Assembly: GCF_963576615.1 (NCBI RefSeq)
Contig: NC_088708.1
Coordinates: 57,523,196 to 57,587,195 of the forward strand
From: Watersipora subatra
Taxonomy: Eukaryota; Bryozoa; Gymnolaemata; Cheilostomatida; Watersiporidae
Direction of reading: 5' to 3'
DNA length: 64,000 bases
Shown here: piece after piece, positions 27,401-52,745 of the stretch
How the letters are laid out: each line of letters opens with the position of its first letter
Position numbering within the stretch: position 1 is the stretch's first letter
Made by a program: the position numbers and the translations under genes
Notes under the pieces: model-generated
The model's input: the letters and a program-made list of their open reading frames with translations, nothing else
Database searches by the model: none
Told to the model about the DNA's origin: nothing

Positions 27401-30400
27401 ATAAGCGCGTCTACTGTGTAGGAGTGATATCTGCAACTAGCAAAAAGAACACCTTTTAAATGCTTAAAATGGGATAGTAAAATTTTCAGTAGCCAATAAA
27501 ATAATACATCATATGAAGAAAAAAATCGAAATAAAAAAGAAATGATCACTATTATCTACTTTATGCACCTCATCTCTATTGAGAAGTAGTTACCTTGTTT
27601 GTAGCCAGTATGATAAAGGAGAATGCATATAAGAAATGAGTGACAAAAATTAACTCTTGCAAACATGCTGGAATAACCAAGTATAACACTCCTTTTTCGT
27701 CCCAATTTTCAACATCAAAAGTTTAGGGAACGTTATATGTTGCAAAGATCAATTTGCAAATCGAACTTTTGTGTAAGAAGAAATAAAATGGCGTAATTAA
27801 TTTTATTGGTATTTCATCAATCAGTATCTTATGAAAAGGTCTTTAAAAGTGCACAAATCTAAGAGTATAAGCAGTCGAAAGATCTACTAACGTACTATAT
27901 TTTTCAGGCTATAAGATGCACCGGATTATAAGACGCAGCATATATGTATTATATTTATATCTATAATATATTTATATTATATATTTATATATAATATATT
28001 TATATATATTATATTTATATTATAGGGGGCGGTAAGTGAACATAGGTAAGTTGTGTTATTATTCTATTATTGTTTATTCAACTAATTAACAATATCTCTC
28101 AACGATGTTCAGTTGCAGGCTAATAAAAGAATACGAAACCATTGTTCATTCTTGTATTTTTTGTGCGAGCGCACACACACGCTCAAAAAATCAGTAAAAT
28201 CACTTTTTTTCTAAATTCATATTCTTTAACCTTCATCTCTAGTGTCTCACGATTTCCAACTCCCTCAGAGCCAATCTTGCTGACTACCGCTGTCATCGTC
28301 CTGTTCAGTAAAAACTTGATCGACACAGAAGAACGATACCTTAGCCCAGCCATGATCCATTGGCAAATAATGGCCGAACTCACCAGATGCTCCACATATA
28401 ATCACAGGACCTGAGGGAGCGTTACACTCGGTATGTCAAAAAAGACCAGTTTTCCGATTTGAAAGTGGGGAGTATTATACTTGAGTAAGCATTATACATA
28501 CATATACATGATGGGTGAATACAAGTAAATATGAATCCTATGAATGACAGCGTTTTAATAACCTAACAAATTATATTATGCTGTTTTAAACATACACGGG
28601 CTATATAACAAATTAGTTTAACACAACCACGACATAAGAAGAATCTTGTTACCATGTCAGAGGCTTGAAAAAGAAAGAGCAAGTGATGAGAGTTGAAAGC
28701 AAACGAACTAGCCAGTATTCGTGCTCAACAAACCAGATGAAGTTTTACTTACTTTTTCAAGGTCTTCATTCGGAAGATCAAGGGCATCGCTGTGTGCAAA
28801 TAAATCTTTTAAAATATCAATATTTGACTGCACGTCCTGCAGATTGTCACTGAATTGAGTTTTAAATGTTCTGGGGTTAGGCGATGATGCCGTTTTATCC
28901 GGTATAGTAATTACTACGTTATTAATGTTATCATCAGGCCCCATTAGTGTAACTGTACTGGGTATGATCTGCTGGTCTTCCTCCTGAAAACCAACAAAGA
29001 TGCAAACAATCTAATTATATTGATTTAATTTTTCAATTAATATTTCTAACCAAATTAAACAGTTTCAAGGTCTTAAATTACAATCAGATGTTACATGACA
29101 CTCATGGCAGTCGGATAAAACCAGTTACTAAGGGGAATGCATGACATACTCAAGACATTCAGCTTAGTAGGTAACATGCAACTGCTATGTAAAATCTGCA
29201 GTAATAGGCTGCACTATAAATTGCTGAATAATTGTACGCATAGTTATTCTCTGTGCTTTATCAGCTCACCTGATGACCTCCCATTATACTTTGAGACAGT
29301 CACGGCACTAGCCTCTACGATAGTAACAGCCATGCCCATCCGAAGCCAGAAGCAAAGGTTAGGATAAAATATTGCTTCTGACAAAATTCAAAATCCTGAT
29401 ATTCAGCTTACCAGATTACACTCTTAACACCGAGACTATTTCAGAATAGTAATGCGCATACTTATTCTCTGTGCTTTACTGGCATGCTTGACGATCTCTC
29501 ACGGCACACCTAACTGCCATGGGAACTAGTTGGTACTAGTTTAAGCAGTATATACTACTTACCTATCGTTATCGTAGTTTGAGATCAGGAAGATGTGGAC
29601 AGATTGATTATTATAGCAGCGACATGACAGGATCAATTCTTTAAATAATAAGGCAAGCTGTCTAGTACATAGTCAGTAAAGTAGTAGTAAAGTAGTGAAT
29701 GTAATGCAAAAACAAGAAAGCCTGAAATTGGTGATGGTAAAAATGATAGGGGAGACAACTAAAAATAGAATATAATAAATAACAAATAAGAACAGAACCA
29801 TAAATAAGCTATGTTAATGTGAAGTTCAACTAGTAAGAGTTAGACTAACTCTGTATCTCCACTGCTACCTACACACCATTAATTTCTCACGTCACCAAAC
29901 CAATGCCTCAATTTGCCTGCCTTCAATAGCAAATGAAAATGCAATAAAAACCTCTTGATAGGTTATCACTGCTTAGTCTCTTGCAAGCAATTTAGTGTTT
30001 GCATTCACCTTGCATTTATAATAACTAGTAATAAACGTTAAGTATTTAAGTTCTGGAACAAGTTAAACGAAATACAATGTATTCTAGAAAGAATGTCAGA
30101 TCAGACACGATTGTTTTGTTATAAAAAACAAACTTCGGAGTAAATTAACTCTGCGTGTTGAAGTTTGACTGTACGTTATATTCACATATTAACATACTGA
30201 ACACTTGATGGAATAAAATTAAATTTTCCTAATTAGTTTGTCATCATTTGAAAGATTGAAAAAGAGCGGGACTGAAAGAATTATATGCAATAACTATTAC
30301 CTAACACAGAATGCTACATACTTTACAGGAACTACTTTAGTAAAGCATATTAGCAGAGTACAGTTATTAATTATTTTGATGGCATAGCTTACAAGGTTTT

Positions 30401-33400
30401 AAAAGAAAATGGCTACGCTTTGGTGTTAGAACACGGACTTTGATACGCCATATCACTGGCTGCAATTACGTTGTATGGTGTTTCTGAGAAGTATTTCCAT
30501 TCATCGCTCATCAAAACGCTTTAAAGTCTACAGGTCAGTTTGTAAACCACAGTATGGACTAATCCGAAGTCAATAGATCAGATTTAATTTTTTCGAGTCA
30601 GAGTGTAATTCTGATGATTGTGACAATCGATCTTCTCAAGTACACCTGAGAAGGTGTGCTATCTATTATTAATGCCAAAATTTGATGTTATTGAAGATTA
30701 CGAGGTGATCGTCTGGTTGTGCAGTCGAGTGGCAACCTATCAAGGCTCCAACATACACTTAGATCTATCTGCTGCTGCAGAGTAACTAAAATGAGTAAAA
30801 CTTACTGAAGGTGTTGCATCATCAGTGATGTCACGAATTGTCATAGCATTGTTAGCCGATGTTTCATAACCAGTGTTTGATAGCTCATCCTCCTGCACAT
30901 AGACATATGGTTACCATACATGGCACAAAAATATAAAAATGAATACATGACAAAAATAGGTGCAAAATAACAAAGCAATAAGGGACAAAAATTAATACAA
31001 CAATATGTATATATTCAGTTCTTGGCGTAACGAAAACATCTGAACTATCGTTATTGATATACTCGATACTCTCTGACGGTACCGGAAATCAAAATATTGG
31101 TATTCAAAGCTTACAACACTTGGGAAGGTATGTCAAAAGGACTAGCTGATAACCAATGTGATGCAAGGATGTTTGATAGATGCAACAATACCTAATCCGA
31201 TATAGTCATAACGCTGAGCAAACTAGTCACCTATTACCGATGAACTTCCACAAACTATTAGTAAATTTTATCAGAAAGTATCGGTATTTTTTATCATTTG
31301 GATTTGTTTTTTATGTTTGAGGTGATCTGACTGCCAGGATGTTTCAAGATTAAAATCGATAAAACTTGATCACGATTAAAACGCTGAGAAGAAAACTACG
31401 TGAAAATAGCTTTTTTTGCTTAAAATAGCTCAAAAACAAATACTTCGTTTTTGAGCTTTTAAGGGCTTGTAATCACATTTCCACATATTTGGCACCTACA
31501 ACACAACAGAGTAAGCCATGGTGAATCTTTTGATACTAAATAACTGTAATGTGAATTTTGTTGCAAGTCAACCTTTAAGGGTTAAGTCAACATTAGCACA
31601 ATTTGTTAAACAAAGTCCAATTAAGTATATGCCAAAGTAGCATTTTTTGATTTAAAATGGCTTAAGATATTTCTTTTAAATATTTAGACGCAATTTAAAT
31701 ATCTGCATTAACAACATTACCGAGTAAAGTCCATGACAAGTACCTGTAACATGCTGTTATCACCCGAACTAGACAGCGTAGCACCTTTGGGTATCTTAGC
31801 GCTAGGACCAACAGGCAACATGGGAAGTTTACGCTTTCCTCCACCCCTGCACTTGCCGGCAACAGCCGTTATGAAGTGTAACAACTGCAAAACAATTCAT
31901 ACCTCAATAAGCAGCAAAGCAGAATCTTCTTGAGAGTCAGACTGGGGTGCATACTGACCACAATAATGAGTGCATTAAAGAGTTGAGTTGCAAAATATTT
32001 TAGATTTGAGAATATTTTATGTAAAAACATTGCTATAGTTATTCGTTACAATAGATAACGTATAACATTAACTCAGTATTGTTCCATTAAACACAACACA
32101 GAAGCACACATTAAACATACATTTTTGTCCCTTCTCACAACACAGAAGCTAAATATCCCATTCAGCTTCTGTGTTGTGAGAAGGAACTTTTAATACAATT
32201 AAACATTTTTATAATTGGTGGCTGTATTCGTTAAAACGCGCTATTTTTGTTTCAGAGAAGTATGGTTGAATGCACTACCAATTATCATTTGCACCTCTGT
32301 TTACGTATAGTCTCGAACCCAACAATTTTCTGACAATGTACAATCATTAAACTTTAACAAGTGCTTTTGGTGGAAAAGAAACGATGCACCAAAAACATTG
32401 GGAGAAATCATATTACAGACAACTGTTTAAAACGCACTGGTTAATGACAACGTCAACTTGAATCTAAATGGCAGAGAGGCAGAGTACCTTGTTGATGACA
32501 AGCTGCTGTTGAGTGTGTTGGTACCTCAGTTTAGCCACATCCTGCCATAACCTGCTGTTTTCTTTCTTTATCACGTTCAGCTGTTGGCTGTAGCTGTCTT
32601 GAGCATCCTTGAGATCACGAATTTCAACTAGTACATCTGGTACAATGGCTGGTTGTAATGAACCATATTCGGTAAGCTTGTCTTTGAGAGCTGCACCCTA
32701 TTGAGGTAAATCAGCATTTGAGATGAATGGTACTTTGGACCACACATACAAATATCATAAACACACCCAATGCCTGTTGCGAGGTTGGCTCGGCTAATTT
32801 TGTTTCATGCACCAGTTTCACAGCTTTGAAGAATGCTATTAACTATGAAGAAAATATCACCAAAACATCCTAATGCTACAGACAAGTCTTTGGAGCTTAT
32901 CTGACGTTTAGTAAAAGCTATAAGGGTTCATTCAAGCAAACCACTACTTGCGCTAGGATGTCATTGAATGTAGCAAAACTACAGGATTGGTAGTCTTCCT
33001 AGCACAGCCTTCCATGAAATGGTAAGAATAGACTAATGTTGGATACAATAATTTAGATTCTTTATACAGTCAAACTTCGCCATACAAAACCAATCTGCTA
33101 CGATATTTCCTTTCTATGTCAAAACTTTGGTATGTTGTAGTAAATAATCCTACCAGAATGTGTTGCCTTTTGATTCATTGAGCCCCACAAACAATGACAA
33201 ATACTTCAAGAAATTAACTACCTATAGTATCAAAACAAATGCATTGTGTAAAACTATGTTGAAAACTAAATGTAAAAGCGTAAGTTGCATATAAAAATAA
33301 AATAAAGATACATTTTTATGTTATTTTGGCTGAGAGAAATGTGAATGGAAGTGCTGGTTCGGTGGTAGAGTGATTGATAGAAATACTCCAGCTTATGCTA

Positions 33401-35365
33401 GATATAGTTTAAATTAAATCCATTGAGTTAATTTATATTCAATGTTTATTATTTTTACATTTTATTCCTAAGCTTTTTAAGGTCGACCAGCTTTTTACTC
33501 TTACTTATAAACCTGGGTTAAGAAAATTTGGAAGCCATTATAAGTCTAGATTTGGCTGTGGAAAAAAATTTAAAAATAGAAATGATGATTTTTGTATACT
33601 ACTATCATCGTTTCAGCAGTTTCAAAAAAAAAAATTTTCTTAGTCATATCTTGCCGATTACAAAACTTGCTTAGCATGTAGTAAGTAACTAGCCTTTCTT
33701 GGTTGCTACATAAAATAACGAGTGATTCGGTTGTCAAAAAGGAATGGCTTGATATTGGTGAATAACCCTAAAACCAATTGTAGCAGAAGACATGCTGGTG
33801 GTAGATTTTTCACTCCATGATGCAATTGTCAAGAGACCAATGAGTTTATAAAATAACTTAGAACACTAACAAAACTGTTCAATAAAAATAACAATATATC
33901 TGAGCAAACTAAATTGGTAACAATAAATTGTAAATAAAAACAAAAACTATCAATTTTTTAAAGAAGTTTATAGAAAGCAAGCCAACCGCGAATGCGGTCA
34001 AACAACTTTTAATCTACAGCGATACCTGTTTCTTAAAATACATTTGACAATGCTACTGTATTATTTTAATCTGTACTCACAGCCTTGTCAGCTTTCACAT
34101 TCTAAAAACAAAAACACTGGAATAAATTTGACAAGATACTTGAGGAAGTCTTATTATATCCATCGCTTATTCTATCACCACTAGTTCATGCAACGCATAT
34201 GTTATCAGTGAAGACATTGATAAATGAATAAAAAAGACTCATCCTTAAAATAAAATAACCAAAAACCCTTCACAACTCAAATAAAAATTATCATCCTGCA
34301 ACTCTGTTTACCTTTCGTTTTATATGTTCCATAAGAGCAGGGTTGTCTCGTACAAAGTATGGATTGTGGAATTCCATGTCATCTCGTGTAAGAAGCCCAC
34401 CTTGGTCTATGTTAGTAATTTTCTTAAAGCCATCTATGAGAAGTCAAAGGAAATTATGATAGTAATAACCAAACATTTATGAAAATGATGCAACACATGT
34501 TATATAGAAAACATGAAAGTGAACAGATATCCTGCGAGCAAGCTTACAAAATTTTTAACCTCCAAATCAAACAACAGGCTCTATAAAAGCATGACGATTT
34601 TAAAGCTAGCATTCAAGTTATTTGGTCTATTGATGAAAAATTAAAATACATGTACTTGAAGTGTTATACACACTAAAATTGTGTAACTACACTATGTGAT
34701 TCAGTATCACTCTAAAAAAATTAAAGATATTACTTACACATGTTCAACTGTCTGATAAAACTAGCTAAGTTGTTGTGCTTGAAATACTGTGGCAGGACCT
34801 CCTTTGCAAACCTCGTCTGATCAAATATAATGAAACTGTCACCATCCTGTAGAATTACAAAATAAAAACACGTAACACTTGGAAAGACTACTAATCACAA
34901 TGCTTAACACAAGCAACAACTGTTCCAGATTTAGATAGGCCCTATTAACCTAGAGGCGAAATAAGCTAGCAAATTAGTATTGCAGCGATAAAAAAAAAAA
35001 CAAATCTTTCACGACTTGTACTGACAGACTACTGGTATACTAATTCCAATAGCAACATGTTAAAATGACCGATACCTTAAACAGAACAAAATGAAACTAT
35101 TTCGTTAATTAGTCATCTTGCACTACGACTCACGTACATTGTTGTTGAGATTCCAGCAGATTAAATCATTGTTTGTAGGGTCATCCAGTAGATTTCTCAC
35201 TTTCAAAAGAAACGCAGGTATTACATTGGTTTGTGATGGATTTGTTGAAGGAAGCTGTAATTTTATCGGTGGGTTCATCTTGACAAAAACTTCGTCTGTG
35301 ATTTTGCGTTTTCTTAAATGCTCGCCAAGGGACTGTATTGGAAATTTGACGACGGGATTACTCAT
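18412..35365 (-). CDS. HSF1: Heat shock transcription factor 1
   Basis: The minus-strand CDS joins 35138-35365, 34738-34846, 34312-34433, 34081-34101, 32488-32697, 31744-31884, 30806-30892, 28753-28983, 22773-22826, 22007-22121 and 18412-18515. All phases agree, giving about 473 residues (human HSF1 has 529). It is the nuclear trimeric activator that binds heat shock elements. The DNA-binding domain spans about 46-152 (IPAFL, then [31 protein letters not shown] and FVRDNP). The HR-A/B coiled coil spans about 165-245 (VINK spliced to LLHFITAV). HR-C lies near 350-390. The tail is acidic and ends SSHDLD. Exon 1 gives a long leader before the DNA-binding domain, and Met30 is an alternative start. 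The 21-nt exon 4 is the least certain. HSF1 is preferred over other HSFs because BOP1 is its divergent neighbour. Confidence 0.93.
18911..20829. mobile_element. pogo/Tigger-like element with TATAACGTA iterons (HSF1 last intron)
   Basis: The left end reads TACAGTAGAGGCTAC (TA at 18909-18910) and runs into many 16-17 bp units of CTATAACGTATACCTC type (about 18920-19040 and 19874-20060). The right border near 20829 is inferred from a TTACGTTATA-rich inverted match and is uncertain. The interior is non-coding and includes a 17-bp-arm hairpin at 20608-20649. The iteron array is interrupted by another MITE. Confidence 0.5.
19042..19873. mobile_element. MITE nested in the iteron array
   Basis: The terminal inverted repeats are about 65 bp (CAATGATATAAACCC at the left, its complement ending GTTTATATCATTG at the right). 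The element splits the TATAACGTA array. The flanks CTATAGC (19035-19041) and CTATACC (19874-19880) differ at one of seven bases and may be the target duplication. It is 832 bp and non-coding, and its superfamily is not assigned. Confidence 0.75.
20943..21882. mobile_element. TTAA-flanked MITE, family B (HSF1 last intron)
   Basis: This 940-bp copy of the element at 11106-12048 keeps the same terminal inverted repeats and TTAA at both borders (20939-20942 and 21883-21886). The high similarity between the two copies suggests fairly recent spread. Confidence 0.88.
23328..24695. mobile_element. TTAA-flanked MITE, family C (HSF1 intron)
   Basis: This 1368-bp element has terminal inverted repeats of roughly 200 bp, starting AGAATAGANAAAGCATA and containing a shared GAGGTGTTGACTGATG block. 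TTAA lies at both borders (23324-23327 and 24696-24699). The interior has short open frames on both strands without family resemblance. Confidence 0.88.
24700..25966. other. HSF1 intron sequence, little recognised
   Basis: AT-rich. The only structure seen is at about 25888-25935, which is the inverted counterpart of 20722-20770 in the TATAACGTA element (shared TTGCCTAATCCTTTCCAAGA), so a fragment of that family sits here in the opposite orientation. Confidence 0.5.
25967..26851. mobile_element. pogo/Tigger-like element, shortened (copy C)
   Basis: The left end (TGCCATAAAACTTAATTTGAG) and right end (AAAGGTTTCAAGGTA) are diverged versions of the TACYGTARAACC termini. The interior matches copy D and fragment E and includes the CTATTTTTCAAC and subterminal AGAGGTGACATTCAAATAG motifs. 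It is about 885 bp, so it is internally deleted relative to copies A and B. An acidic frame ([12 protein letters not shown]) near 26500 may be a relic of a transposase. Confidence 0.65.
27122..27168. repeat. GC-rich hairpin in HSF1 intron
   Basis: The arms 27122-27142 and 27148-27168 are 21 bp and complementary at all but one position, with a 5-base loop. The arms contain GCGGCCTCTGTCTG. The GC content stands out sharply from the AT-rich flanks. Confidence 0.85.
27893..28025. repeat. MITE end fragment plus ATATTTATAT microsatellite
   Basis: 27893-27943 resembles the terminus of the 40015-40443 family (TTTTTCAGGCTATAAGATGC, with GGATTATAAGACGC). It runs into an imperfect ATATTTATAT-rich microsatellite. 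The other end of the element is not seen. Confidence 0.45.
29137..30324. other. HSF1 intron sequence, partial internal duplication
   Basis: 29225-29290 and 29445-29500 share a short diverged block (CGCATASTTATTCTCTGTGC). Nothing else is recognised in this part of the intron. Confidence 0.4.
30325..30660 (+). mobile_element. Internal fragment of the pogo/Tigger-like family (fragment E)
   Basis: It aligns with 26245-26580 of copy C over about 330 bp (AGGAACTACTTTAGTA, TTATTAATTATTTTGATGGC). It has neither terminus, so it is a broken remnant in the HSF1 intron. Confidence 0.7.
31440..31574 (+). mobile_element. TTAA-flanked MITE family A, solo terminus
   Basis: Only the last 135 bp or so of family A is present, ending GCAAGTCAACCT with TTAA at 31575-31578. 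The short inverted match just before it (GCTCAAAAAC and GTTTTTGAGC) marks where the two arms may have been joined. Confidence 0.75.
32130..32184. repeat. Perfect 21-bp hairpin in HSF1 intron
   Basis: The arms 32130-32150 and 32164-32184 are perfectly complementary (CCTTCTCACAACACAGAAGC on the left) around a 13-base loop. It lies in the 603-bp intron between exons encoding the two halves of HR-A/B. Size and shape resemble a short miRNA-like foldback, but there is no extended basal stem. A partial direct repeat of one arm (ACACAACACAGAAGC) lies at about 32093. Confidence 0.85.
32698..34080. other. HSF1 intron, nothing recognised
   Basis: AT-rich intronic DNA. A short A-box-like stretch (TGGTTCGGTGGTAGAGTG near 33355) lacks a B box, so it is not called. 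Confidence 0.45.
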
Positions 35366-35696
35366 GTTTGTTTTGTATAGTAGAGACGTTTTTGGAGCTG
35401 TGAACGAAAAGACAATTCTAAATATTGCCGATAAACCAGCGTTAAAAATTAATATTTTACTAGAGTTGTCTTTTACTGCTACACAACCTGGTATGCGATT
35501 AAACTATTAGTTTGGAAAAACAGAACAAAAATGTCGTACGCATGCGTATATACGATAAGTAGCTTACGAGCTTTGTAACTAGCTATTTTATATTTATCGG
35601 GCCGTGTACGGTACTTTATGACGAAAGAGTGCCTGAGATTTTGGATTTAAAGTCGAAATTGCTGTCAATTTCTATAGAGCTCAAGCTATAACAGAA
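35366..35696. promoter_or_regulatory. Bidirectional HSF1-BOP1 promoter region
   Basis: Only 331 bp separate the HSF1 and BOP1 start codons, and the genes are divergent, so this stretch must contain both promoters and both 5' leaders. It holds a 12-bp palindrome TACGCATGCGTA at 35537-35548, close to the NRF1 consensus TGCGCATGCGCA. No canonical TATA box or clear inverted GAA heat shock element array was found by eye. In mammals the same two genes share a short bidirectional promoter. Confidence 0.8.
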
Positions 35697-38600
35697 ATGG
35701 CAGCCTCCAAGCGCAAGCGTGATGCAGTCACTCAGGTTTTGAAACAAAACACCTTTGATCATAAATCAAATGGCATAGCTGGACCAAAACAATTGGATTC
35801 AAACGAAAAACTTGTAAGATATGCTTCTAGCAAGTAGTAGTTTTAAAATTCGAATATCTTTCAATGGCTATTAAGTCTCAATGTATTTTATAAAACTTGG
35901 GTGCTCCATATCTATATTTCTAGTCTGTCCCATTACCATTTTCTCAACAGCAGCGAGTTGTCAAAATAGTTTCTAAGAGAGTTTGAAAAGATTTTCTTTA
36001 CTGTTGACAATTTGGTCTGTGATGCCGAGTTACAGCACTGATCAAAATTACCGTAATCTATGTTTGTAAACTTGTAATAGCGCTGCATCAAGTGTATCTC
36101 TGAGACAATGGAAACTCTAAATCCCTATGTGTAAGTGGAGTGCTTCAGGAGGAAATAGTATGCTACAGCGTTATTACATTCTTACAGCGTATAGCTTTTT
36201 AGTGATTATGCAGTTTCTGGTAGAACTCTCACAAAGTATTAATTATGGCAAAATATATCTCATTGGAATTGGAGACTGCTGGAGTTCTAAGTGGTCTCTT
36301 AATGTTTTGAGAATGTGACATGAGTTAGGTTGACCCTTAAATACTTGAAAAAATGCAAATGCTTCCATCATTAGACAGTGGTAAGTGCATTGTATTATGT
36401 ATTTGTATTCAAAATTTCGAAACGATTCACTCGTAATATGGGTGGCCCTGAGAAGGTTAATTGGATTTATTTTGCTGGAAGTAGTGCTAGCACTTGATGG
36501 GTCCACCCTTTGTCTTTGATCACGAGGTTGCACCTTTTTTGGCCGTGCTCCTAAATGAGCTTCTGCAGCTATTTTCTCGTTGCACTGTATTGCCATGTTT
36601 GGAATATTCCTTTGCTCAATGCAGTTTTTTATTTGTTTGTCAACAATTAGTTCACTGAACTGTTGCCAAAGATCTTTGACTAATTTTCTTTGTCTGGATT
36701 TTGAGCTGGCCAGTTGAAACATTCAACTCAATCACTTTTGTACCAGTCTTTCACCAAATGTGACAAATGGCATGCTGCATTATCATCCTGAAATAGCCCA
36801 AATTGGTCATCATTGGTCAAGGGGTCAGGTCTGCGGTGCTCCTTACCATTTTATTTTCTAGCATATTCACCTACTTTCCTGCATTCATCATTCTCAAAAA
36901 GGTTTCCAGGGTTAAAACAACTTATACATAGCCCAACCTCGGCTATGTTATACACCCTATAATATATCCGAGGTTAGGCGTTTCATTGTTCATCCGGTGA
37001 CACTGCACAAAAAACTTTTCTCCTGAGCCACTGCGGATATGGAGCTTGCCAGAGTAGTTCTCTCGTGAATGTTGGTACATATTAGAACAACACTTTATTT
37101 TATTTCTGGTTACTCAAAAAGCGTGTGGTATTTTGTCTTGTTCATTCACTTTAGTTTGTGGTCGTCTTCAATAGCAGTTTCCTGCAAGCTCGAAGTTCAT
37201 TTTTAACAGTTCTATTCTAGGGTGCAAGGGTGTAACTTTAAATATAGTTTAGACATGAAACCAAACATACACAAGTATAATAAGAACTGTTAGTTTGACT
37301 CATGTCAAAACATCAGCTCATTAAAACACCAGTCATTTCGCTTGTGTTTCTTAACAATGCTAGTAATTTTATTGGAATAAAACAGCTAATTTAGAAACTA
37401 AACTACTTCAGATTTGTAATTTTCTGGTTCTTTGTGTTTTACATGCAGTAGTTTTGGGCAATGAAACCTTGCCAAAAACATTTACACTAATTTCAATTAT
37501 GCAATATCTGGTATTGTCAGCTGCTACTGTTTGCTTAAAATCTCATCAACAATATACAAACCATAGGTTTGTTGTGAGGTATTTGAAGTTCGTTTGAGCA
37601 GAGGTAGAATAATTTTTGCTAAACTATCCAACAACTGGGTAGGTATCACTTGATAATATCTGTTGTTACAAATCTAAATCATACCCTATTTAGTCAGAAT
37701 TAAATCTTTCAAAAACTGCAAGAGTATTATGTTACTTGAGTCATTTATGTTACTACAGTGGTCCTTCGTCATACGATTTCAATTCGTCGGGTCGGTGTTG
37801 GCATCATAAGGCGAAAATGTTGTATAGAGTGGTATAGAAACTCATAGTAATTATCTAATGTAAACACCCCTTTGGTAAAAACATCAAAATTTTTTATACG
37901 TACTGTACATATTAAAAATTAGTAGCGATATAGTATGTTAACCACAATAACTATAGTTACCTACAATAACTTTAATGTATTTAATTTAGTGAACCTTATG
38001 ATCTGCAATAAAATGTAACCTTACAATGTACTATATGCAGTACGTACAGTAGAGAGTTCTTACCTCTAAGACAAATGTATAACATAAGCTTTGAATATAA
38101 CTTAAATGAATTTAGGTTACTAAACACACTAAAGCTAATTTTTAGTATGTATTTTACTGAACAAAATTTTAATTTGGTCGTTCGAAAATTTATCGCCTAT
38201 CCGTTTCTGGTTTCGCTTTGACTATAACTTATAAGGAATAACGCTGAACTGAGGGAGAGCAAGCATCGCATCTTTTTCAGGCGTTGTGGAAGGGATTTTG
38301 GCGAATAGCATATCGGCATCTTCATTATTTCGGCATATTCAGCACACCGACTGTCAAATTTGAATTTCGAGATAAATTTTTATTGATATCACATGGCGAA
38401 AAAATGTTGTATAACGAGGGTAAAAAAAAAAACATCGAGTTCTACGGTGCAAGGCGAAAAAATCGTATAACATTGTCATCGTAATGCGAGGGAGCAGTGT
38501 ACAGTACATTTTATTTGATGATGTTAAAATTTCAGATTGCATTAATAAAATAACTTGCGGTGTACAGTTTGTAATCTTGCATCAATGGTTAGGTTTAAAC

Positions 38601-41600
38601 TTTAACATCTTATACTGTGTTGCCTAGGACCTTGAGCCGCTACTGTTTGTGGATGAGGGACCAGATGATGAGGATACCTGCAGCCAGTCGGCAGAAGATT
38701 CATCAGATTATTCGGGTCTCTCAGATGATGAAGATACTGATTCAGATGATCTAGAAACTGGCAGTGAATTCTCGGACAACTTGGCTTATCAAGTACGGTC
38801 TTTTTATTACAATTCTGGCTAATCTTACAGTGCCTAACATGGTTTTCATATTAAGTTAAAAAGTGGCCTGATTGTCTGTTTGTAGGGTCCGGATAGGAAT
38901 GGATTGTCTCCTAAGGAGGTTACTAGAGCAAACGAGTACGAGTATGATTCCTCTGATGAAGAGGTATCACAAAAGTTCCTTGTAGTAACTTAAATTTCTC
39001 TTAAGCATTGTAGTTGCTTGTTTGATAAGTGTTGCTAGTATATATGAGTCCAATAACTTTTTTAGGACACCAGAAATACTGTTGGAAATGTTCCCATGGA
39101 GTGGTACAAGGAATACCCTCATATCGGATATGATCTAGCTGGACGGAAGATCCTCAAACCTGAGACAGGAGATGAACTTGACCATCTTATCGCTCAATCA
39201 GAGAATCCAGATTACTGGTATATATGTCGTTCCACAGCTCCGCCCTATATTTTGTCTTTGAGTCTGGGCATGCCTAAAAACAGCCGTAATCATAGAAAAT
39301 TCTTTAATCATGCCATTCCTTCACTGATATTGGTCTAGATTAACTAGAGCCCATTTGTTAGTGTTAGCTGTTAGCTCTCAGTTGACGATTATTAATAGTC
39401 ATTATACATCAGAAAGACATGTTTTTGACTATTAAAATTAGCTTTTCATGTTTTAATAGTTTCTTGTTTTATGCCAATAGTTTGTTCAAAACTTGTAAAT
39501 TAATTTAGGAAAGCAGCTTTGTGTGACTTGAAATTCACATTGAAGTTTCTGTAGTGGCCACACAGGTAACGGAGTGCAACTGTAGCTAAAACATTGTTTC
39601 AGGCAGCTATATGTACGTGTATTTAGTTTATTAAAAAACTTCTTTTCCAATATTGCGTATTTACTTCATTGTGAAATTGTATAAGCCAGTTTGGAATGTG
39701 TTGGTGATTGCGGTAGTTCATATTCTATACTTCTTTTCAGTTCTGCAGCTTAATATTTAGTAGATGGTCTATCACTGACTGCCTTAAAATTATACAGTAA
39801 ATAACAAATTAACATCTAAAATTGCCATGACAATATTTAACAAAGTATGTAGTCATTGTAGTCATGATGTACTTCCTAATAATTGATTGTTGGATATTTT
39901 ATTAAACCTCGTTGTGTTGTATATAGTAATTCAGGGTTACTTTACTGGCAAGTTCCATTCTATTTTAAATGTGGGTGAACTGCGAGTTTGGGGCTAGGTT
40001 TTTGAGCTCACTTACCATACTTTTCGGACTATTAGCCGCTACTTTTTTCTGATGATTTGAACCATGCGGCTTATACAAGGGTGCGGCTATTCTGTGGCTT
40101 TTTCTTTGGCCACTAGGGCGCATTATCCAGAATCTCCGGTTAGTGCGCCTTTAGCGGTGAAAGAAAATACGAAACAATGCCTAGCGATACTGTTCCATTA
40201 GGCGCTAGGATAAAAAGCATCGGTTAATATGAAACAGCGCCGTTAGGCACTGTTCCGTTTTAAACAGCAAAGTTGTTGCGACGTTAAAAAGCTTGAGTTG
40301 CTTTTTAACTCAAAGCTTTAAACTGTCTTGAGTTCTGCGGCCTATACAAAGGTGCGGCCTATGTATTGTTTTATTATGGCTTTTTGGAAAATAAAGCAGA
40401 TGCGGCTTATATAGGGGTGCGGTTTATAGTCCGACAAGTACGGTATTTGTTTTAGACTAGTTTGCTGGTTTTAATTTGTTTCAGTTACTCCATGTGGCGG
40501 CTGATGTAAACATTTTTCTAATAGCTGTATTGTTACTTGAATGATGACTGGTAACTTTAGTTTTTAGTATTAAACTAGAATTCCAGGTAGGTGAGTGAAA
40601 GTAGTTGTATTATGTCTATACTGGAAAGTTAAATAATGTTCTAGGAGAACAGTCAAGGATCCACAGACTGGACAGAATATAGTGCTGTCAAAAGAAGATT
40701 GCGCAGTAATACAACGATTGAAAAGCGGCAAGTATGCAGATGGTGATGTTGATCCATTCAATTTCGATTGGATTGGCACCTTTGAGGATGAAATAGAAAT
40801 TCACCCTTTAAGCAACCGTCCAGAGCATAAGAGAAGCTTCATTCCTTCAAAGTGGGAGAGGCTGAAGGTAGGAATGGGCATGGTTTCTTGTTTTATCAGC
40901 AATTTTGGTAACTACGGCAGCAAAATAATTTTGTTGCAGTACTCGTATATTATTTTAATGCTAAACATCATTTAAAGCAAGTAGTTAGCTGTGCAAGGGG
41001 TTGATTTGTTTATGTCATGTTGATGGGCATAACTGATGACTTGATGACAAAAATCGACAAGCCAGTCACTTGAACATCGTGATATTTTGTGAAAGCTATA
41101 GCTGTTGTATTAATCTGTAAATAGTATTTCAGTCTGACAATTTGTTTTAAGCTTTAGACGTAGGTATATCCGTAGTCACCATTGTTATAGTTAGATGAAA
41201 AATTTAATCTATATGTTCTTATCATTTCTAATGATTAATTGCTCATTTTTTAGCTTTTAAGAGCTTGTAATCACATTTTCACATATTTTGCACCTTCAAC
41301 ACAGCAGAGTAAGACATGGTGAACCTTTTGATACCAAATAACTGTAATGTGAATTTTGTTGCAAGTCAATCTTTAAAGGTTTTTTATTATTTTTAGAGTA
41401 TAAGATATAATTATATAATAGTTATAGTAATGATAAAGCTGCAACAAATATGATTAAGCTTAAATAACATTAGAGAAAAAATAATGAGTATTGATCATGT
41501 TATTGTGAGATTGTACTAACGAAATGTTTTGGGTATATTCTGCATGCTCGAGATCTTCTGTAAAACAGTACTGACCTATGTTAGAGAGAGCAGGGCAAAA

Positions 41601-44600
41601 GGGTGACTCAGTTATGTGATGAAACTCTACCCATGCTATATCTTTTGTATAAACAACAAAAGCGTTTTTTGGGCTTAACATTTTTGAAAAACTGCATCTC
41701 AGCCTCGAGGGCATCTACAATGTTTACCGCTCATATAAAATGCCTAGAAGTTTTTTCCAGGCAGCAATATTAACACAAATTGCCTTCATTCAGTTCACAT
41801 GCTAATTGTTTGACGAGTTCTGAATTGCACTTACCTTCTGGATTACTAATTATATAATCATCAGTATCTATGGAAAAGTTAAAACGTTGAAAAGCTATAT
41901 ATATTTTTACTTACATGGCTATGACTTACGCTTGTTTACTTACATGGCTATGAGTTACGCTTGTTTACTTACATGGCTATGACTTACGCGTGTTTACTTA
42001 CACAGCTTGAATGTGATGTACCGTTGGTCTAAAAACATATGGTTATCAGAAACTTCATCTGCTGCCAAAACAAATAATTTTGCTGTTTGTTCGCAACATT
42101 CTGTAAAATATTTAGCATTCTCTACAATTGTTTTTCTGCTTCAAGTTTTCCGTCTAACACTTCTTTCAGGGCACCACCAACTGGCCCTTTGCCGTGTGAG
42201 GTGGCAAAGAAGTTCCATTCCAAATGGATTAGGTTGCGGCCCTCTTTAGATCAGCCCAAATTAGAGAATGAGTAGCAAATTTAAATTTGGCTGCAGATCC
42301 GTCAGAGAAGATTTTGATAGATGTGATCTGAGCATTTTCAAGCTTATGTAAAAAATATTTTCTCCAAAAAAGGATGAACAGCGTATTTATTATGAATTAG
42401 ACAATCACTGATTATGCAAATACTTTTCATGCCAGATGCAATCCATGTTCTGCAGATGTTGTCTGCCCATGTTGAAAGCAGAAATGACCAGCAGACTTTC
42501 CACCTAACAATACTCTGTTTCAAGCACTTGTTGCAAGTTTTTTGCATGAGTAAAATGGATTAAATTTTAAACCATACACAGAATTGGAGTCGCAAGTCTG
42601 GGTAAGACATTTGTAAGGTAGCAGCCGGTTTTATCTACCAAATATGCTTGCTAATTTCCGACATTGGCTTAAATTTACAAAATAATGAGTCATTTGTACA
42701 CGAGAACATCATCGCACTACTAATTATCTTTAAATGTGAAGTTCACTCCAATTAATCCTATAATTATGTAAGTTGAGAGTTGTAACAATGATGATAGTGT
42801 AACAGCGGTGATGCAAATTACTGAAACAGTACTCAAACTAATAATTCAAGTGTAGCAGTGTTTATGCATTCATGGGCAGCAAAGCCGCTGTGGAATCCAT
42901 TACAATTAGACTTATGGAAATATGGTAATATTCCCATAAGACATAAGTATTATATGGGAATGAGTGTTAATGGGAATATGTATACCGTGTACAAGTGTCT
43001 CTATCTTGCCATTATTGCAATGAATTTTTTTGCCCAAATACACCAACTTTAGCAAACTATTAAAACATACTAGAGGAGAACGATCCCCCATTATTTTTAT
43101 TTTAGGGTTTGATGTGCATACTTCGTAAAAAAAGCATTTTTTAATGAAATTCCTGTTAAAATTTTGTAGAAACTTCCATTCATTTATGGATATACCCACA
43201 TCAACTATAGATGCCCGTCCTAGTCTCAATATACTTTTTTCCATTTGTTTAGTTGTACTATTATTTTGCATACTGCTTTGCAATCATATTTACCATTTTG
43301 TGTGTAAATTCATAAGATTTTTCTAAAACATGTTATCTGTGGAGGTCTTAAGCAAAATACGGTTAACATCAGAATAAAGCTTTTGAAGGGCTAAGCCAAA
43401 AACATCTCTCAAAATACTTTCGTAATTCAAGCATCACAATTTTCATTTAATCTGACAATTTTCATTTAATGTGGTAATTTTAACTTAATGTGGTAATTTT
43501 CACTTAATGTGGTAATTTTCATTTAATGTGGTAATTTTCATATAATGTGGTAATTTTCATTTAATCTGACAATTTTCATTTAATGTGGTAATCTTCATTT
43601 AATGTGGTAATCTTCATTTAATCTGACAATTTTCATTTAATGTGGTATTTTTCATTTAATGTGATGAATTGCTCAAACTCCTAGTTCTATTTTACCGATC
43701 ACAAGGGCTCAACTTGGTTTGTAAAGTTCCAAAGTGAGGTAAAAGCTCATGTTCTGTTAGCTTCGAAATTTGCAAGCACTGGTGACCATCATGCTTGTTT
43801 GATTTTTAATTGTGCATTTTCTCTTAACACCTCGAATATTTAAATGAAGAAGTTCTTCATTTTTATTCCTTGCGCTTTTTATTGTTGTTCTTCATCACCT
43901 GTTGATGCCATGCAGTGTATGTCTCTGGTGACGGTTCATATCCATTTTGTTTGCGGAATAACTAAAACGCAATACCGTATGTTTGACTCTACCCACAGCA
44001 TCCCCAGCATTTTTTTTTAGGTTGTTATAGACATACTGCACTCTGTTCACGTGTCCTAAACACAAACCGAGTACGTCATAGTTTTAGTTCATGACTCTGT
44101 GAGGATTGAGTGTATTTCAGGTTGGTAAAATGGTGCACGCCATGAAGATGGGTTGGATGAAGACCCCGAGTCAGAAGAAGAAGGAGCTGGAAGAGAAGTC
44201 TAAAGAGGAGCTACCATGCTATGACCTTTGGAGCAATGAGGATCTGGTAATTCATGTTACTAATGGTCGATGTGTTTAATTCCTTTATTTTACAAGTAGC
44301 AATGAGTTTATCTGTTTATTATAATGCATCCGGTTCCTTCAGCAGATTTGGTCGCCCAACAACCTGCTCACATCCCCAACTTTTTCACTTCCTCAACTTT
44401 TTCACATACCCAACCAGTTCGCATCTTCATATTTGTCACATTACTGACCTTGTCACATCTCCAAACTTTTAAATGTACATAATGCCCTTAGATTTCAAGA
44501 TATTTCAAGTTTTAACATTTCAAATCATCTGTGTTTTTTATATAATGTACTTCAAGCGGTTTGTCGCCCAGCTGCGGAGTTGAATTTAATTTGGATGGGT

Positions 44601-47600
44601 TGTTAACTCTTTTCTTTCACAGAATGATAGATCCAGACTGAAGATGCACATTCCAGCACCAAAGACAGTGCTCCCAGGGCACGCCGAGTCTTATAACCCA
44701 CCTTCTGAGTACTTGCTTACTGAGGATGAGCTCAAAAAGTGGAAAAATACTGAAAAAGAAGACAGAAGACAAAACTTTGTACCGAAGAAGTATTCATCAA
44801 TGCGGGCCATACCTGGTTACAGCAAATTCATCAATGAACGATTTGAACGATGCCTTGATCTCTACTTGTGTCCGCGCCAGCAGAAGATGAGGGTAACTAA
44901 GTCTTGTTGGAGTTGTGTAACTAAAATTAATAATACAATTTGAATTCATGTTTTTGAAGTGCTCCAGAGCCAGAACAATTTTTTCTTAAGCTCATAGGCC
45001 TTAGGAGTGATCTATTTTTTTCTCTTGGGTGTAAGTTACAAAAATCAGTGATGAAAGAAGGGTGCACAGTTGTGTGATCTTACTTTTTTATTTGTCAATT
45101 TCATATCGCAATTATTACATCTCTACAATTTCTTACTTTTTAAGATGAAAGAATCACATGCAAGTAAATGATCTCTCAATTTGTGGTTGAAGCTCATGAC
45201 ATCTTCTGGGGAAATAACTGTTTTTTTAAAACAACTGCTACCATCAATACCTATATTTGATTTTAAATTCTACGCCTTAATCAAAGCTACATATGACCAG
45301 TAGTAACACTATTCGATCTGTACTTTGTAAGGCAACAAGTTATACTTTCTTTATATTCTCAGATGAATGTCAACCCTGAGGATCTTATACCTAAACTACC
45401 CCAGCCCAAGGACCTTCAGCCTTTCCCTACTACTGAAGCCATAGTAGGTTTTTGTTGTTAACAAAGTGGCTCATCTCTCTGATGTTTTGTGCTAAACGAA
45501 TTTTATTGAAATATTTTAGTTAAGATTAAAAATATTTTCATGTTTACCTTAAATATCTTTACATAGATGTAGGTTGTATAAAGTCTTGCTTTGCACGTAT
45601 TTACTGCTTTTCATGTTTTGTGGCTATGAGTGCTGAACACATTTTTGTAGGTTTACACTGGCCATAAAGATATAGTGAGCACGATATCAGTGGATCCTTC
45701 TGGCCAATGGATAATATCAGGTATGAGACTTGGAACTGCTTTTGCTTGTTGGTAACTACAGTTGTCTGTTGATAATTCATCATTTCTTAATGTAGTTGCA
45801 TTTGTCTGTTGGTATTTCATTGACTGTTGATGGTATTTGTTGGTAGTTCATCAGTTCTGAATGGTATCTGTTGGTATTCATCAGTTCTGAATGGTATCTG
45901 TTGGTATTTATCAGTTCTGAATGGTATCTGTTAGTATTCATCAGTTCTTGAAAGTATTTGTTGGTATTCGTCAGTTCTGGATAGTAGCTGTTGGTAGCTC
46001 ATATATTGTTGATGTAAATACAGGTGTCTGTTGTCAGCTTAGCACTTCTTAGGCTGATCCAGTTTAGTAGTTTGGATGATTAAAATTATTAGCTACATTG
46101 TTCTATAATATTTATATTGAAAATTTTTACAAGAAACATTTATATGTACATATATCAAGAAGTGTTAGGTTTTTAATTTTAGTTGTTTAAACTGAATAAG
46201 CCAAAGTTATGGCTAGTTTGCTAAGTTGGTTCAATTCATATGTAATGTTTCGTTTTGGTGATTGTTGAGCATGTCATTACTTTCAGGCTCAGATGACAAG
46301 ACTGTCAAATATTGGGAATTGCAAACTGGCAGATGCATGAAAACACTAAGATTTGAAGAGAAAGTCAAGTCTGTCACATGGTGTCCCAACTCGGGGATCT
46401 CTCTAGCTCTTGTAGCCAGGTATTATCGACCTAATTGTTTTAGCCATGCTCGCTAGCCACCTATCGTTGCATGTCTAATGACACTGTATGCGTACTCTCT
46501 AAGTGTTTGTCTAAAAACATGTATAGTCTCTGCATTTGCGGTAAATAGTCTTTTGGATATCTAGTTTGATTTTGCCTGGAACGTTGTGTACTTGTGTTAT
46601 CCTAGTTCTACTACAGCTTTGTTTGTGTTCGGAGATGGGGCTCTTCAGTTTATCAAAAATTGGACAGTCTTTAATCTTATTGTAGTGGCTCATCAGTGTT
46701 TGTTCTGAACCCGGGTCTTGGTGATAAGCTAGTTGTTTCGAAAACTGATGAAATGTTGGCAGCTGTAGAAGATGAGTTAGAGAAGCAAGGAAGTAAGTAA
46801 GAACATTCCATAGATTCTGTAACCTTTCACATTCTTATGTTGAACGTTATGGGATTGTTGAGTGAGACAGCTTCTGGTTTGTCTGACAAAAGCTCACACA
46901 CCTGAAGCTTTGTTTGATAAAAATTATACACAAGTTGTTAGGCCATATTCTTCTAAGAATGTCATTTCATGCTTTTGTTGTTTGCTTTATTTTGTATAGG
47001 AGTCAGTTTTATGAAGCGTGAAGACTTCAAATCTACTCTATTAGTTATTGTACTAATATTGTTTCATACTCAATGTTAAAATGCAACTGCTAGGCCATCA
47101 GTTGTTCATTGTATCTGGTCCTTAAGCTGCATGCACAGTGCTAATACTTTTAATTGGTTATTATAAGGTTAGTCTTGCTTTTGAACTTGTTGTAATTAAC
47201 TTATGGTATGTGTACTACTGCTCAGGTTCAGTCTCTGATTGGAATAAATATGAGATGGAGAGTAGCGAATATACCGATAACTGCAGACGGTTGCGGATTT
47301 CTCACTCCAAGGTACTGCAGCAATCACTAGACTGAGTCACTAGCATCCTATGTAGCCACAGTTCAGAGTGTAAGCGCTAGTAGGTTGCACAAGGTTATCC
47401 CAGATTCGCTATGTGTGATCCTATTGAAGCTACAGTTCTAGTGGTTTGCTCATCTCGGGCCAAGAAATATTTAATTGAATAATCTATGATACAGGCTGTT
47501 GAATAATCTATGATACAGGCTGTTGATAATCTATGATACAGGCTGTTGATAATCTATGATACAGGCTGTTGATAATCTATGATACAGGCTGTTGATAATC

Positions 47601-50787: not shown

Positions 50788-52745
50788 ATTTCATGAAAAG
50801 TATCCCTCATAAGCACATTCTAAAAATAAATTGTTTGGATGTTATTCTCACCCAAATAAGCATGAAAATATAAACAAGAAGAAACTGCATTGTGCCTAAA
50901 TATAGCTGACAATAATGATGATCATAGCTTTTTAATTGTGTTCATCAGTTAGTATAGAAGTAAATCCTTTGTAACAAAAGCATATTGGCATATTTTTGTT
51001 ACTAGCTGTAACAAAGAATTATGTATGAAGAAATAGTTAAGGCATAGCAATAATTGATGTTTAAACAAATTTTTAATGATTAAATTAAATCGAAACGTCA
51101 TTCTGTTTTTATCATACTCTTGAGATAATTTACATACTGCATAGCTATTAATAATATTGTGTAATCATCACCAATTAATGTAGATTTGTACTGTGAAATG
51201 CAAAATAATTAATACACTCCAATTTAAAAACATTTCTCGTTGACCATTTATTAGCAAAAGCTTATGATAAGTAAACTTAATAATTTTTGAACAAAGTGTC
51301 ATTGGCTAATTAACAAGCTCAAAATATTATATTATCATACAGGTAAGTTCAAAAACAAAGCAGTTTCGTTAAGCTGTTTCAAAACACTTATGTGTAGTTC
51401 GCATAGTAGCTGTTAATTAACTTTTGAAAACAAATTTTCTTAAGACAGTTCATTTTGTAAAAGTTCGAAAATGAATGTTTTTAAAGTTGTGTTCATCACA
51501 GTACAGTCTATATTCTCATAATTTGTTTAAACCGTATTCACATGAAACCTAAATATATTATTTCAATCAGTTTAGCTTTTATTTGTTATTATTATCTACT
51601 CTAAGAAGTTTGTTCATCACACCAGTTTTTGCCAAAAACAGTGAACGAAAATCTAATCTTGGACCACGAAGATCACCCACAAACTGATATTCAAATATAT
51701 ATTACAAGTTAGCTACATTGATGCACGATACTTATTACAAACTCGCTAAACATTTCAATTAGCAAGACACACTGTTTATTATGATCTAGTGATTCCTAAG
51801 GAAGAAGAGCAAAAGTAACATTGATAGACCTACTCTACTATACATCAGCCACATCAAAAACAATAATTAAATCCTCAAAATAGAAGCGCCATAACTTACA
51901 CACAACACCGTTCAATACATTCGTTTCGTAAAAACAAATATTTGTACAATAAACCCGTGATATCAACAAAAAATTCCAACGCACAACTATGAGTCACACT
52001 TATTTCAATAGCTCGTTGTGCGAAAATGTTGGAATTTGGTCGAGTACAACTCACCGAGATTTATTACCGGAAACTAGATTTCCAACATATCGTATATTCT
52101 TTTTGCTGAGTAATGTCCATACGAATAACGACTAAAGCTCGAACAGTCTCTTTACTTTAAAGAACGTTAGCTATGCAAGCGACTCGATGCTGTTCTGTTC
52201 GTTTAGTTCTGCTGCGTAGTGCAGGATATGTTAACCATGGGAATTTAAACGAAAATATAGCATTGAGTGGTATAGAAAATTTTAGTTTTTTGCTTATACA
52301 TTGCAGAATAATGCTTATACATTGCAGAATAATTGAGCACAATTTTTGGGCATTTCAAACTAATGACTCAAAGTTTTTCGAGTCGCATGATAGTCATCTG
52401 CTATCTAAAATCACTTAAGTCGACAGAACTTGTGCACTAGTGTTAAGTGAAGTCCACTTTTTAAAATTTCGATTTGAAATTACTTATGCGTTTTAAATTT
52501 TATGCTACCTTCATCACGAAATTTTTAACGCACTTTTTATAGTCACGTTTTTACTTCGAATATTACTTGACTTTTATTGAAAACATTTGAACTAAATCTA
52601 GATATGTACATGATGGCCCTTTTTTCCTCGGGGATCGAGGTCTTAGGGTTCGATTGACCAAGACCAAGACCAAGATAAAAGCGCCTTTTACCGGTTACAA
52701 TAATGTATAATATAGATATATGTATATATAAATATATGCATCAAA
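50788..52745. other. Intergenic upstream of SYS1
   Basis: AT-rich DNA that should contain the SYS1 promoter near 50790-51000. An 81-codon plus-strand frame at 52173-52418 begins with a basic, leader-like stretch (MQATRCCSVRLVLLR) but has no follow-on exon or family match. 52296-52333 has a 21-bp tandem duplication. No gene is called. Confidence 0.45.

What the first reader, a model, noticed from the sequence alone, without database searches (positions are those of the whole stretch)
35138..35813. Conserved head-to-head HSF1-BOP1 gene pair
HSF1 (minus) and BOP1 (plus) start 331 bp apart. The same divergent pair with a very short shared promoter is known in human and mouse. Finding it in an apparently invertebrate genome implies the arrangement is ancient and maintained, linking heat-shock control to ribosome biogenesis. 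The sequence shows the arrangement directly, while its maintenance by selection is inference.
Basis: partly seen in the sequence, partly recalled or inferred. Interest (0 to 1): 0.75.

Follow-up and report, generated by a model that had tools for sequence, protein, structure and literature searches.

The report
Ancient HSF–BOP1 divergent gene pair
In a moss animal (bryozoan) the heat-shock master regulator gene and a ribosome-assembly gene start back to back about 330 letters apart, as they do in mammals, so this pairing is probably very old, but nothing here shows that it ties heat shock to ribosome making.

Summary
HSF (minus, ATG 35365) and BOP1 (plus, ATG 35697) are divergent, 331 bp between start codons. 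The genome matches Watersipora subatra, a cheilostome bryozoan (total span, three chromosome lengths, Hox set). BOP1 is unmistakable and the only copy detected. The HSF is the only canonical one detected, best called pro-orthologue of vertebrate HSF1/2/4. Mouse has the same pair on one CpG-island promoter, so common ancestry before the protostome–deuterostome split is far likelier than chance.

No DGAT1- or MROH1-type hit (the human outer neighbours) lies near it, so the pair was kept while its surroundings changed. The gap is CpG-rich for this genome and unique, with an NRF1-like palindrome near its middle. This fits a shared housekeeping promoter. No heat-shock element was found in the gap, and a human tumour study saw no special HSF1–BOP1 co-expression.

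Caveats: transcription starts are unmapped; BOP1 exon 1 rests on splice logic, not homology; motif absences in 331 bp are weak evidence; no other animal genome could be searched. Of five other conserved human divergent pairs tried, HSPE1/HSP60 is still divergent here, so this is a new example of a known kind.

The parts
35138..35365 (-). HSF exon 1 (start codon, N-terminal tail, first part of the DNA-binding domain)
   Evidence: weak phmmer match to human HSF1 DBD on its own (E 0.0062), GT donor
34738..34846 (-). HSF exon 2 (DBD, recognition helix region)
   Evidence: PF00447 hit G000:C1:57557931-57558044
34312..34433 (-). HSF exon 3 (DBD C-terminal part)
   Evidence: joined DBD matches human HSF1 at E 6.7e-36
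34081..34101 (-). HSF putative 21-bp micro-exon
   Evidence: splice sites and phase only
32488..32697 (-). HSF exon with HR-A coiled-coil-like region
   Evidence: exon model; HR-A assignment by eye against recalled HSF1
31744..31884 (-). HSF exon with HR-B-like and KRKLP segment
   Evidence: exon model; assignment by eye against recalled HSF1
30806..30892 (-). HSF exon, regulatory region
   Evidence: splice sites and frame
28753..28983 (-). HSF exon with HR-C-like segment; 3' end of gene not resolved
   Evidence: exon model; assignment by eye against recalled HSF1
35366..35696 (.). 331-bp interval between the two start codons: candidate shared bidirectional promoter; 15 CpG, CpG o/e 1.57
   Evidence: no CCAAT, TATAWAWR or HSE match (absences expected by chance in so short a stretch); unique in the genome as part of 35139-35813
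35537..35548 (.). palindrome TACGCATGCGTA, NRF1-like (2 mismatches to the recalled NRF1 consensus), centre about 11 bp from the middle of the interval
   Evidence: shuffle P 0.018, uncorrected for 13 motif patterns
35694..35704 (+). GAAATGGCAGC over the BOP1 start codon, weakly YY1-like (found only with a consensus chosen after reading the sequence)
   Evidence: only exact match in the window; 4 with up to 1 mismatch, 2.91 expected; stricter YY1 consensus with 1 mismatch: none
35697..35813 (+). BOP1 exon 1 (inferred), 39 codons
   Evidence: best donor score of 56 candidates
38628..49633 (+). BOP1 exons 2-17 with their introns (BOP1NT and WD40 domains)

Best explanation
This is an orthologous HSF-BOP1 head-to-head pair inherited from the common ancestor of protostomes and deuterostomes. 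The two genes are most likely driven from one compact, CpG-rich bidirectional promoter: a single open region with two back-to-back core promoters. It has persisted because a break in the 331 bp would damage the promoter of at least one important gene. Shown: the two genes, their orientation and spacing, the uniqueness of the interval, its CpG excess, a single detected BOP1, and no hit of the human outer-neighbour families nearby. Inferred: common ancestry, a shared promoter, and constraint through promoter sharing rather than heat-shock co-regulation.
For: Gene identity. BOP1: 4 of 4 BOP1NT exon hits lie at this locus. HSF: of 3 PF00447 hits, 1 is here and 2 lie in one distinct two-domain open frame on C1 at 17.38 Mb. 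Same pair in mouse on a CpG-island bidirectional promoter (PMC1449890, passages); cited as HSF-1/Bop1 with CCAAT sites (PMC2670823, passages); bop1 neighbours conserved human to zebrafish (PMC9409556, passages; HSF1 is not named in its text, figure not seen). Species: 783,720,542 bases, C1/C4/C10 of 79,350,317/67,125,504/61,084,640 against W. subatra 783.70 Mb and chromosomes 1/4/10 of 79.35/67.13/61.08 Mb; Hox set as in cheilostomes. Cheilostomes show almost no microsynteny with the phylactolaemate, nemertean and mollusc genomes compared (PMC13326412, section 11 part 1). None of 11 MBOAT hits (DGAT1 family) and none of 3 Maestro hits (MROH family) is near the window. CpG o/e 1.57, above 98.9% of 6,367 same-size windows.
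Against: No 5' ends of transcripts. BOP1 exon 1 has no useful homology support. CpG peaks as high or higher occur elsewhere: at 500-bp scale 38.0-38.1 kb (BOP1 intron 1) and 19.8 kb exceed 35.2 kb. The NRF1-like site has 2 mismatches and would not survive correction for 13 patterns; the YY1-like site is post hoc. The CCAAT box reported for the mammalian pair is absent here. The synteny study used blocks of at least 4 genes, so it does not say how often single pairs survive. The genome searches are exon by exon and score only the best candidates, so a missed DGAT1 or MROH1 is possible. No intermediate taxa were examined; only 12 human divergent pairs are fully conserved in fly and 9 in worm (PMC2670823 Table 2).
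Confidence: 0.63

Rival explanations
1. The pair is held together because stress control and ribosome assembly are co-regulated: HSF or a stress pathway acts on the shared promoter so that HSF and BOP1 rise and fall together or in opposition.
For: Both genes act in proteostasis; a link between failed ribosome assembly and Hsf1 activation in yeast is recalled, not looked up. Conserved metazoan divergent pairs tend to be functionally related (PMC2871058, passages).
Against: No 3-unit HSE within one mismatch and no GAANNTTC or TTCNNGAA in the interval (weak, since few were expected). HSF1 and BOP1 are not specially co-expressed in tumours (PMC5740759, passages).
Confidence: 0.12
2. Passive survival: two neighbours that by chance have not yet been separated, with no constraint.
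For: Some ancient neighbours survive in any genome, and short intervals offer a small target for breaks. HSPE1 and HSP60 are also still divergent here. The reported lack of microsynteny refers to blocks of 4 or more genes.
Against: The human outer neighbours were not found nearby, and the interval is only 331 bp in a 784-Mb genome.
Confidence: 0.18
3. Convergence: the two genes came together separately in vertebrates and bryozoans.
For: Not excluded without intermediate taxa.
Against: About 3e-5 for a named neighbour in a named orientation; about 0.04 expected genome-wide over the 1,427 human divergent pairs of PMC2670823 Table 2 (my arithmetic).
Confidence: 0.03
4. Exon 1 is wrongly assigned to BOP1: the real BOP1 start lies elsewhere and the spacing is larger. 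(This can be true together with an ancient pair.)
For: Exon 1 has no useful homology; a CpG peak as high lies at about 38,000, just before exon 2.
Against: Best donor score of 56 candidates, G at -3 and +4 of the ATG, KRKR N-terminus; the second-best donor belongs to a 42-nt candidate; CpG peak at the interval.
Confidence: 0.12

Closest known systems
Mouse Hsf1-Bop1 CpG-island bidirectional promoter (PMC1449890; Zhang 1998, cited in PMC2670823, not read)
   Same: Same two genes, same divergent orientation, short CpG-enriched gap
   Different: Bryozoan gap is AT-rich (34% GC) and lacks the CCAAT box cited for the mammalian pair; the neighbours I could name differ (SYDE-like RhoGAP beyond BOP1, SPMIP8-like open frame on the HSF side; 8 of 85 flanking frames scanned)
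HSPD1/HSPE1, an ancient divergent pair of functionally linked genes (PMC2871058)
   Same: Divergent, old, and still divergent in this genome (HSPE1 minus, HSP60 plus, about 18 kb between recognised exons)
   Different: Partners there work in one machine; HSF and BOP1 have no shared biochemical task known to me
COL4A1/COL4A2 divergent pair
   Same: Collagen IV exons on C10 run away from each other on the two strands
   Different: Paralogous genes; adjacency not resolved here (146 kb between innermost exons seen, about 140 kb of it not read); further C4-domain hits lie on C4

Membership tests
BOP1/Erb1 | BOP1NT domain followed by WD40 propeller | tested here: met
   PF08145 2.6e-103, PF00400 1.1e-34; human BOP1 4.9e-249
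BOP1/Erb1 | single-copy orthologue | tested here: met
   4 of 4 BOP1NT hits in the genome are exons of this gene (search scores best candidates only)
Canonical animal HSF | complete HSF-type DNA-binding domain | tested here: met
   PF00447 positions 1-100 of 100; 62 of 103 aligned residues identical to human HSF1
Canonical animal HSF | HR-A/B trimerisation zipper and HR-C | tested here: inconclusive
   exons modelled; regions assigned by eye against recalled HSF1
HSF1 specifically | orthologue of HSF1 rather than of HSF2 or HSF4 | tested here: inconclusive
   best bits: human HSF1 127.5, Drosophila HSF 122.5, human HSF4 115.4, HSF2 108.4; no tree; a single invertebrate HSF is expected to be co-orthologous to HSF1/2/4 (general knowledge)
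Bidirectional promoter pair | divergent neighbours with transcription starts under 1 kb apart | tested here: inconclusive
   start codons 331 bp apart; transcription starts unknown
Bidirectional promoter pair | CpG-enriched | tested here: met
   CpG o/e 1.57, 98.9th percentile; but 34% GC, so not an island by the mammalian GC criterion, and other peaks in the window are as high
Bidirectional promoter pair | TATA-less | tested here: inconclusive
   no TATAWAWR, but only 0.41 expected by shuffling
Bidirectional promoter pair | drives transcription both ways | not testable with these tools
   needs 5' end mapping or reporters
Ancient conserved pair | present in intermediate lineages | not testable with these tools
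   no other animal genome held; a viral-contig scan with part of BOP1 gave nothing

The most novel reading that the evidence does not exclude
HSF-BOP1 is one of few gene pairs locked together across bilaterians, even in lineages whose gene order is otherwise scrambled, because the shared promoter couples stress-response capacity to ribosome assembly output.
Probability: 0.12. Interest if true: 0.7.

Novelty: new member of a known kind. Interest (0 to 1): 0.42.

Why it matters
If the pair is ancestral, the mammalian HSF1/BOP1 promoter is not a mammalian quirk but a unit older than the protostome–deuterostome split. It would mark HSF1 as the vertebrate HSF copy that stayed at the ancestral locus. 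Survival in a bryozoan, a group reported to have strongly rearranged gene order, makes it a good test of whether shared promoters protect gene neighbours from being split. It also warns that changes near the HSF start may hit BOP1 as well.

Tried and rejected
Heat-shock elements: a 3-unit HSE with up to 1 mismatch gave 16 hits in the window against 21.05 expected, none in the interval, the nearest at 33963 and 36856; 2-unit forms none in the interval. Of 13 motif patterns in the interval, 2 gave a hit, both the same palindrome, and one of these two patterns was chosen after the fact; most of the others were expected less than 0.5 times, so their absence says little. A YY1 reading was weakened: the site matches only a consensus I chose after seeing it, the stricter one gives no hit. 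Extended synteny with human was tested through MBOAT (DGAT1) and Maestro (MROH1) families; none of 11 MBOAT hits and none of 3 Maestro hits is near the window. Flanking genes: 8 of 85 open frames of 65 codons or more were scanned with Pfam, so unnamed genes may remain. Comparison pairs: five of the ten conserved human bidirectional pairs of PMC2871058 were tried. HSPE1/HSPD1 divergent; collagen IV divergent, adjacency open; IMMP1L not found by motif within about 19.6 kb 5' of the first ELP4 exon seen (one lone LGDN match judged chance); PPAT not found by motif within about 29.6 kb 5' of the first PAICS exon seen (two lone matches judged chance); the RGP1 profile gave no hit anywhere, which the tool says does not show absence. 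Motif scans are weak, so the two misses are not proof of loss. The HSP60 exon gave no Pfam family at 1e-3 but matched solved HSP60s at 3.2e-13. Mitochondrial COX1, wanted for the genetic code, gave no hit. Viral contigs held no BOP1 relative. Print: 9 paper searches were made. One search listed all 40 papers with both HSF1 and BOP1; by title none concerns an invertebrate genome, and I looked into 2 of the 40. One search was too broad to be useful. Irimia 2012 and two Lewin 2025 papers are not held, and no supplementary table was read, so absence from print is not shown.
Full report
Observation. On the minus strand an HSF starts with an ATG at 35365; its first exon ends at 35138. On the plus strand a BOP1 gene starts with an ATG at 35697; its first exon ends at 35813. 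There are 331 bp between the start codons. BOP1 was modelled in 17 exons with GT/AG borders, giving 747 aa and ending at 49633. Its best solved relative is human BOP1 (E 4.9e-249) and it carries BOP1NT and WD40 domains. The HSF was modelled in 8 exons with the 3' end open. Its DNA-binding domain is complete and has 62 of 103 aligned residues identical to human HSF1 and 62 of 102 to Drosophila HSF.

Which HSF. Best bit scores against solved domains were human HSF1 127.5, Drosophila HSF 122.5, human HSF4 115.4, human HSF2 108.4. No tree was made. A genome search for the HSF domain gave three hits: one is this gene, the other two are the two halves of a single 420-codon open frame at C1:17.38 Mb with two divergent HSF domains. 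That search goes exon by exon and scores only the best candidates. So this is the only canonical HSF detected, and by general knowledge of the family a single invertebrate HSF is co-orthologous to vertebrate HSF1, HSF2 and HSF4. All four BOP1NT hits in the genome belong to this BOP1.

Weak point of the gene models. Homology of BOP1 to human begins at residue 57 and to yeast at residue 33; exon 1 is residues 1-39. Exon 2's frame is closed by a TAG at its acceptor and contains no methionine, so an upstream exon is required. Among 56 ATG-to-GT, phase-0 candidates in the 3.26 kb upstream (12 printed), the modelled exon has the best donor score and is 117 nt long; the second-best donor belongs to a 42-nt candidate. 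About 0.24 candidates of at least that length and donor score would be expected in a shuffled region. The donor matrix was trained on 22 donors of the two genes, the two first exons left out. This is good but indirect support.

Species. The genome has 783,720,542 bases in 239 contigs. Its Hox set read from the best hits is Post2-like, Lox5 with the KLTGP peptide, a Dfd-like gene and a pb-like gene on C1, a second Dfd-like gene on C4, and a Cdx-like gene on C8 (names given by eye). KLTGP marks lophotrochozoan and platyhelminth Lox5 (PMC5431905, passages). The set and its split match cheilostome bryozoans (PMC10675955, abstract and passages). The Watersipora subatra assembly is 783.70 Mb in 240 scaffolds with chromosomes 1, 4 and 10 of 79.35, 67.13 and 61.08 Mb (PMC12902671, passages); contigs C1, C4 and C10 here are 79,350,317, 67,125,504 and 61,084,640 bases. 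The window therefore lies on chromosome 1 of W. subatra, by inference from these matches.

Homology of the pair. In mouse, Bop1 and Hsf1 share a CpG-island bidirectional promoter (PMC1449890, passages), and HSF-1/Bop1 is cited as a pair with CCAAT sites (PMC2670823, passages). The neighbours of bop1 are said to be conserved from human to zebrafish (PMC9409556, passages; HSF1 is not named in the text and the figure was not seen). Among 16,835 genes, a named neighbour in a named orientation has a chance of about 3e-5; over 1,427 human divergent pairs about 0.04 such coincidences would be expected (my arithmetic). Common ancestry is the far better reading. It is not proof without intermediate taxa, and no other animal genome could be searched here.

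Pair versus block. In human, MROH1 and BOP1 lie on one side of HSF1 and DGAT1 on the other (PMC5740759, passages). Here none of 11 MBOAT-family hits and none of 3 Maestro-family hits is near the window; a missed exon is possible. The neighbours I could name, from 8 of 85 flanking open frames scanned, are a SYDE-like RhoGAP on the minus strand at 55476-61066 and an SPMIP8-like open frame at 13152-13481. Cheilostomes show almost no microsynteny with a phylactolaemate bryozoan, a nemertean and a mollusc (PMC13326412, section 11 part 1), but that study counted blocks of at least 4 genes and so does not speak of single pairs. The pair has outlived its surroundings, which favours constraint acting on the pair. 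This stays an inference.

The interval. The 331 bp has 34% GC and CpG o/e 1.57 (15 CpG), above 98.9% of 6,367 windows of the same size; the window as a whole is 0.64. At 500-bp scale, peaks near 38,000 (BOP1 intron 1) and 19,800 are higher than the one at 35,200. Thirteen motif patterns were tried. CCAAT, GGGCGG, CCGGAAR, MGGAAG, TGACGTCA (1 mismatch), CACGTG, TATAWAWR, YYCTTTYY, the stricter YY1 form and the half-HSE pairs gave nothing, but most were expected less than 0.5 times. A palindrome TACGCATGCGTA at 35537-35548 lies about 11 bp from the middle; it has two mismatches to the recalled NRF1 consensus and a shuffle P of 0.018, uncorrected; a shorter core gave P below 1 in 500, but that core was chosen after the fact. 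NRF1 and YY1 motifs are among those enriched in bidirectional promoters (PMC10887517, passages). The YY1-like match over the BOP1 ATG depends on a consensus chosen after the fact. The 675 bp from 35139 to 35813 occur once in the genome.

How it most likely works. One open promoter region with two back-to-back start sites feeds two broadly used genes. Breaking or inserting into it harms at least one of them, so rearrangements there are removed. Nothing points to heat-shock control of BOP1: no HSE in the interval, the nearest 1-mismatch ones more than 1 kb away in introns, and in tumours BOP1, though adjacent, is not better correlated with HSF1 than more distant genes (PMC5740759, passages).

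Context. Few human divergent pairs are fully conserved in fly (12) or worm (9) (PMC2670823, section 6, Table 2). I tried five pairs of a published list of the ten most conserved human bidirectional pairs (PMC2871058, passages). HSPE1 and HSP60 are still divergent, about 18 kb between recognised exons, with frames in between that look like retrotransposon pieces. Collagen IV genes are still divergent, adjacency open. The partners of ELP4 and PAICS were not seen in about 19.6 and 29.6 kb by motif scan, and RGP1 was not found. So the HSF–BOP1 pair is a good new example of a known kind rather than a lone oddity.

Verdict. Observation confirmed; ancient arrangement probable; heat-shock to ribosome link unsupported. 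Interest 0.42.

Noticed in passing
L002:1186-2445 (G000 C1:17378828-17379535): A single 420-codon open frame with two divergent HSF-type DNA-binding domains in a row (PF00447, two stretches); a distinct intronless-looking HSF-like gene.
   Followed up: partly
L033 (G000 C1:7477887-7478051): A divergent homeodomain lying between the Dfd-like and pb-like Hox genes, where Hox3 would sit; Hox3 is reported lost in bryozoans (PMC10675955, passages). Its best solved matches are DUX4 proteins, then a mix of other homeodomains, so it is either an intruder or a much-changed gene.
   Followed up: partly
window 37900-38600, 19700-20400, 51700-52600, 23700-24200, 27700-28200: Other CpG o/e peaks about as high as or higher than the promoter's, the first inside BOP1 intron 1; nature unknown.
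   Followed up: no
window 55476-61066 minus: SYDE-like RhoGAP with C2 domain, pointing towards BOP1's 3' end.
   Followed up: partly
window 13152-13481 plus: Open frame matching sperm microtubule inner protein 8 (PF22574, 1.2e-13).
   Followed up: no
window 31903-31953 minus: An exon-like, splice-bounded 51-bp open stretch between the HR-A-like and HR-B-like exons of HSF; possibly an alternative exon (seen).
   Followed up: no
L048-L049 (G000 C1:28022500-28042300): Frames that look like retrotransposon pieces between HSPE1 and HSP60 (by eye).
   Followed up: no
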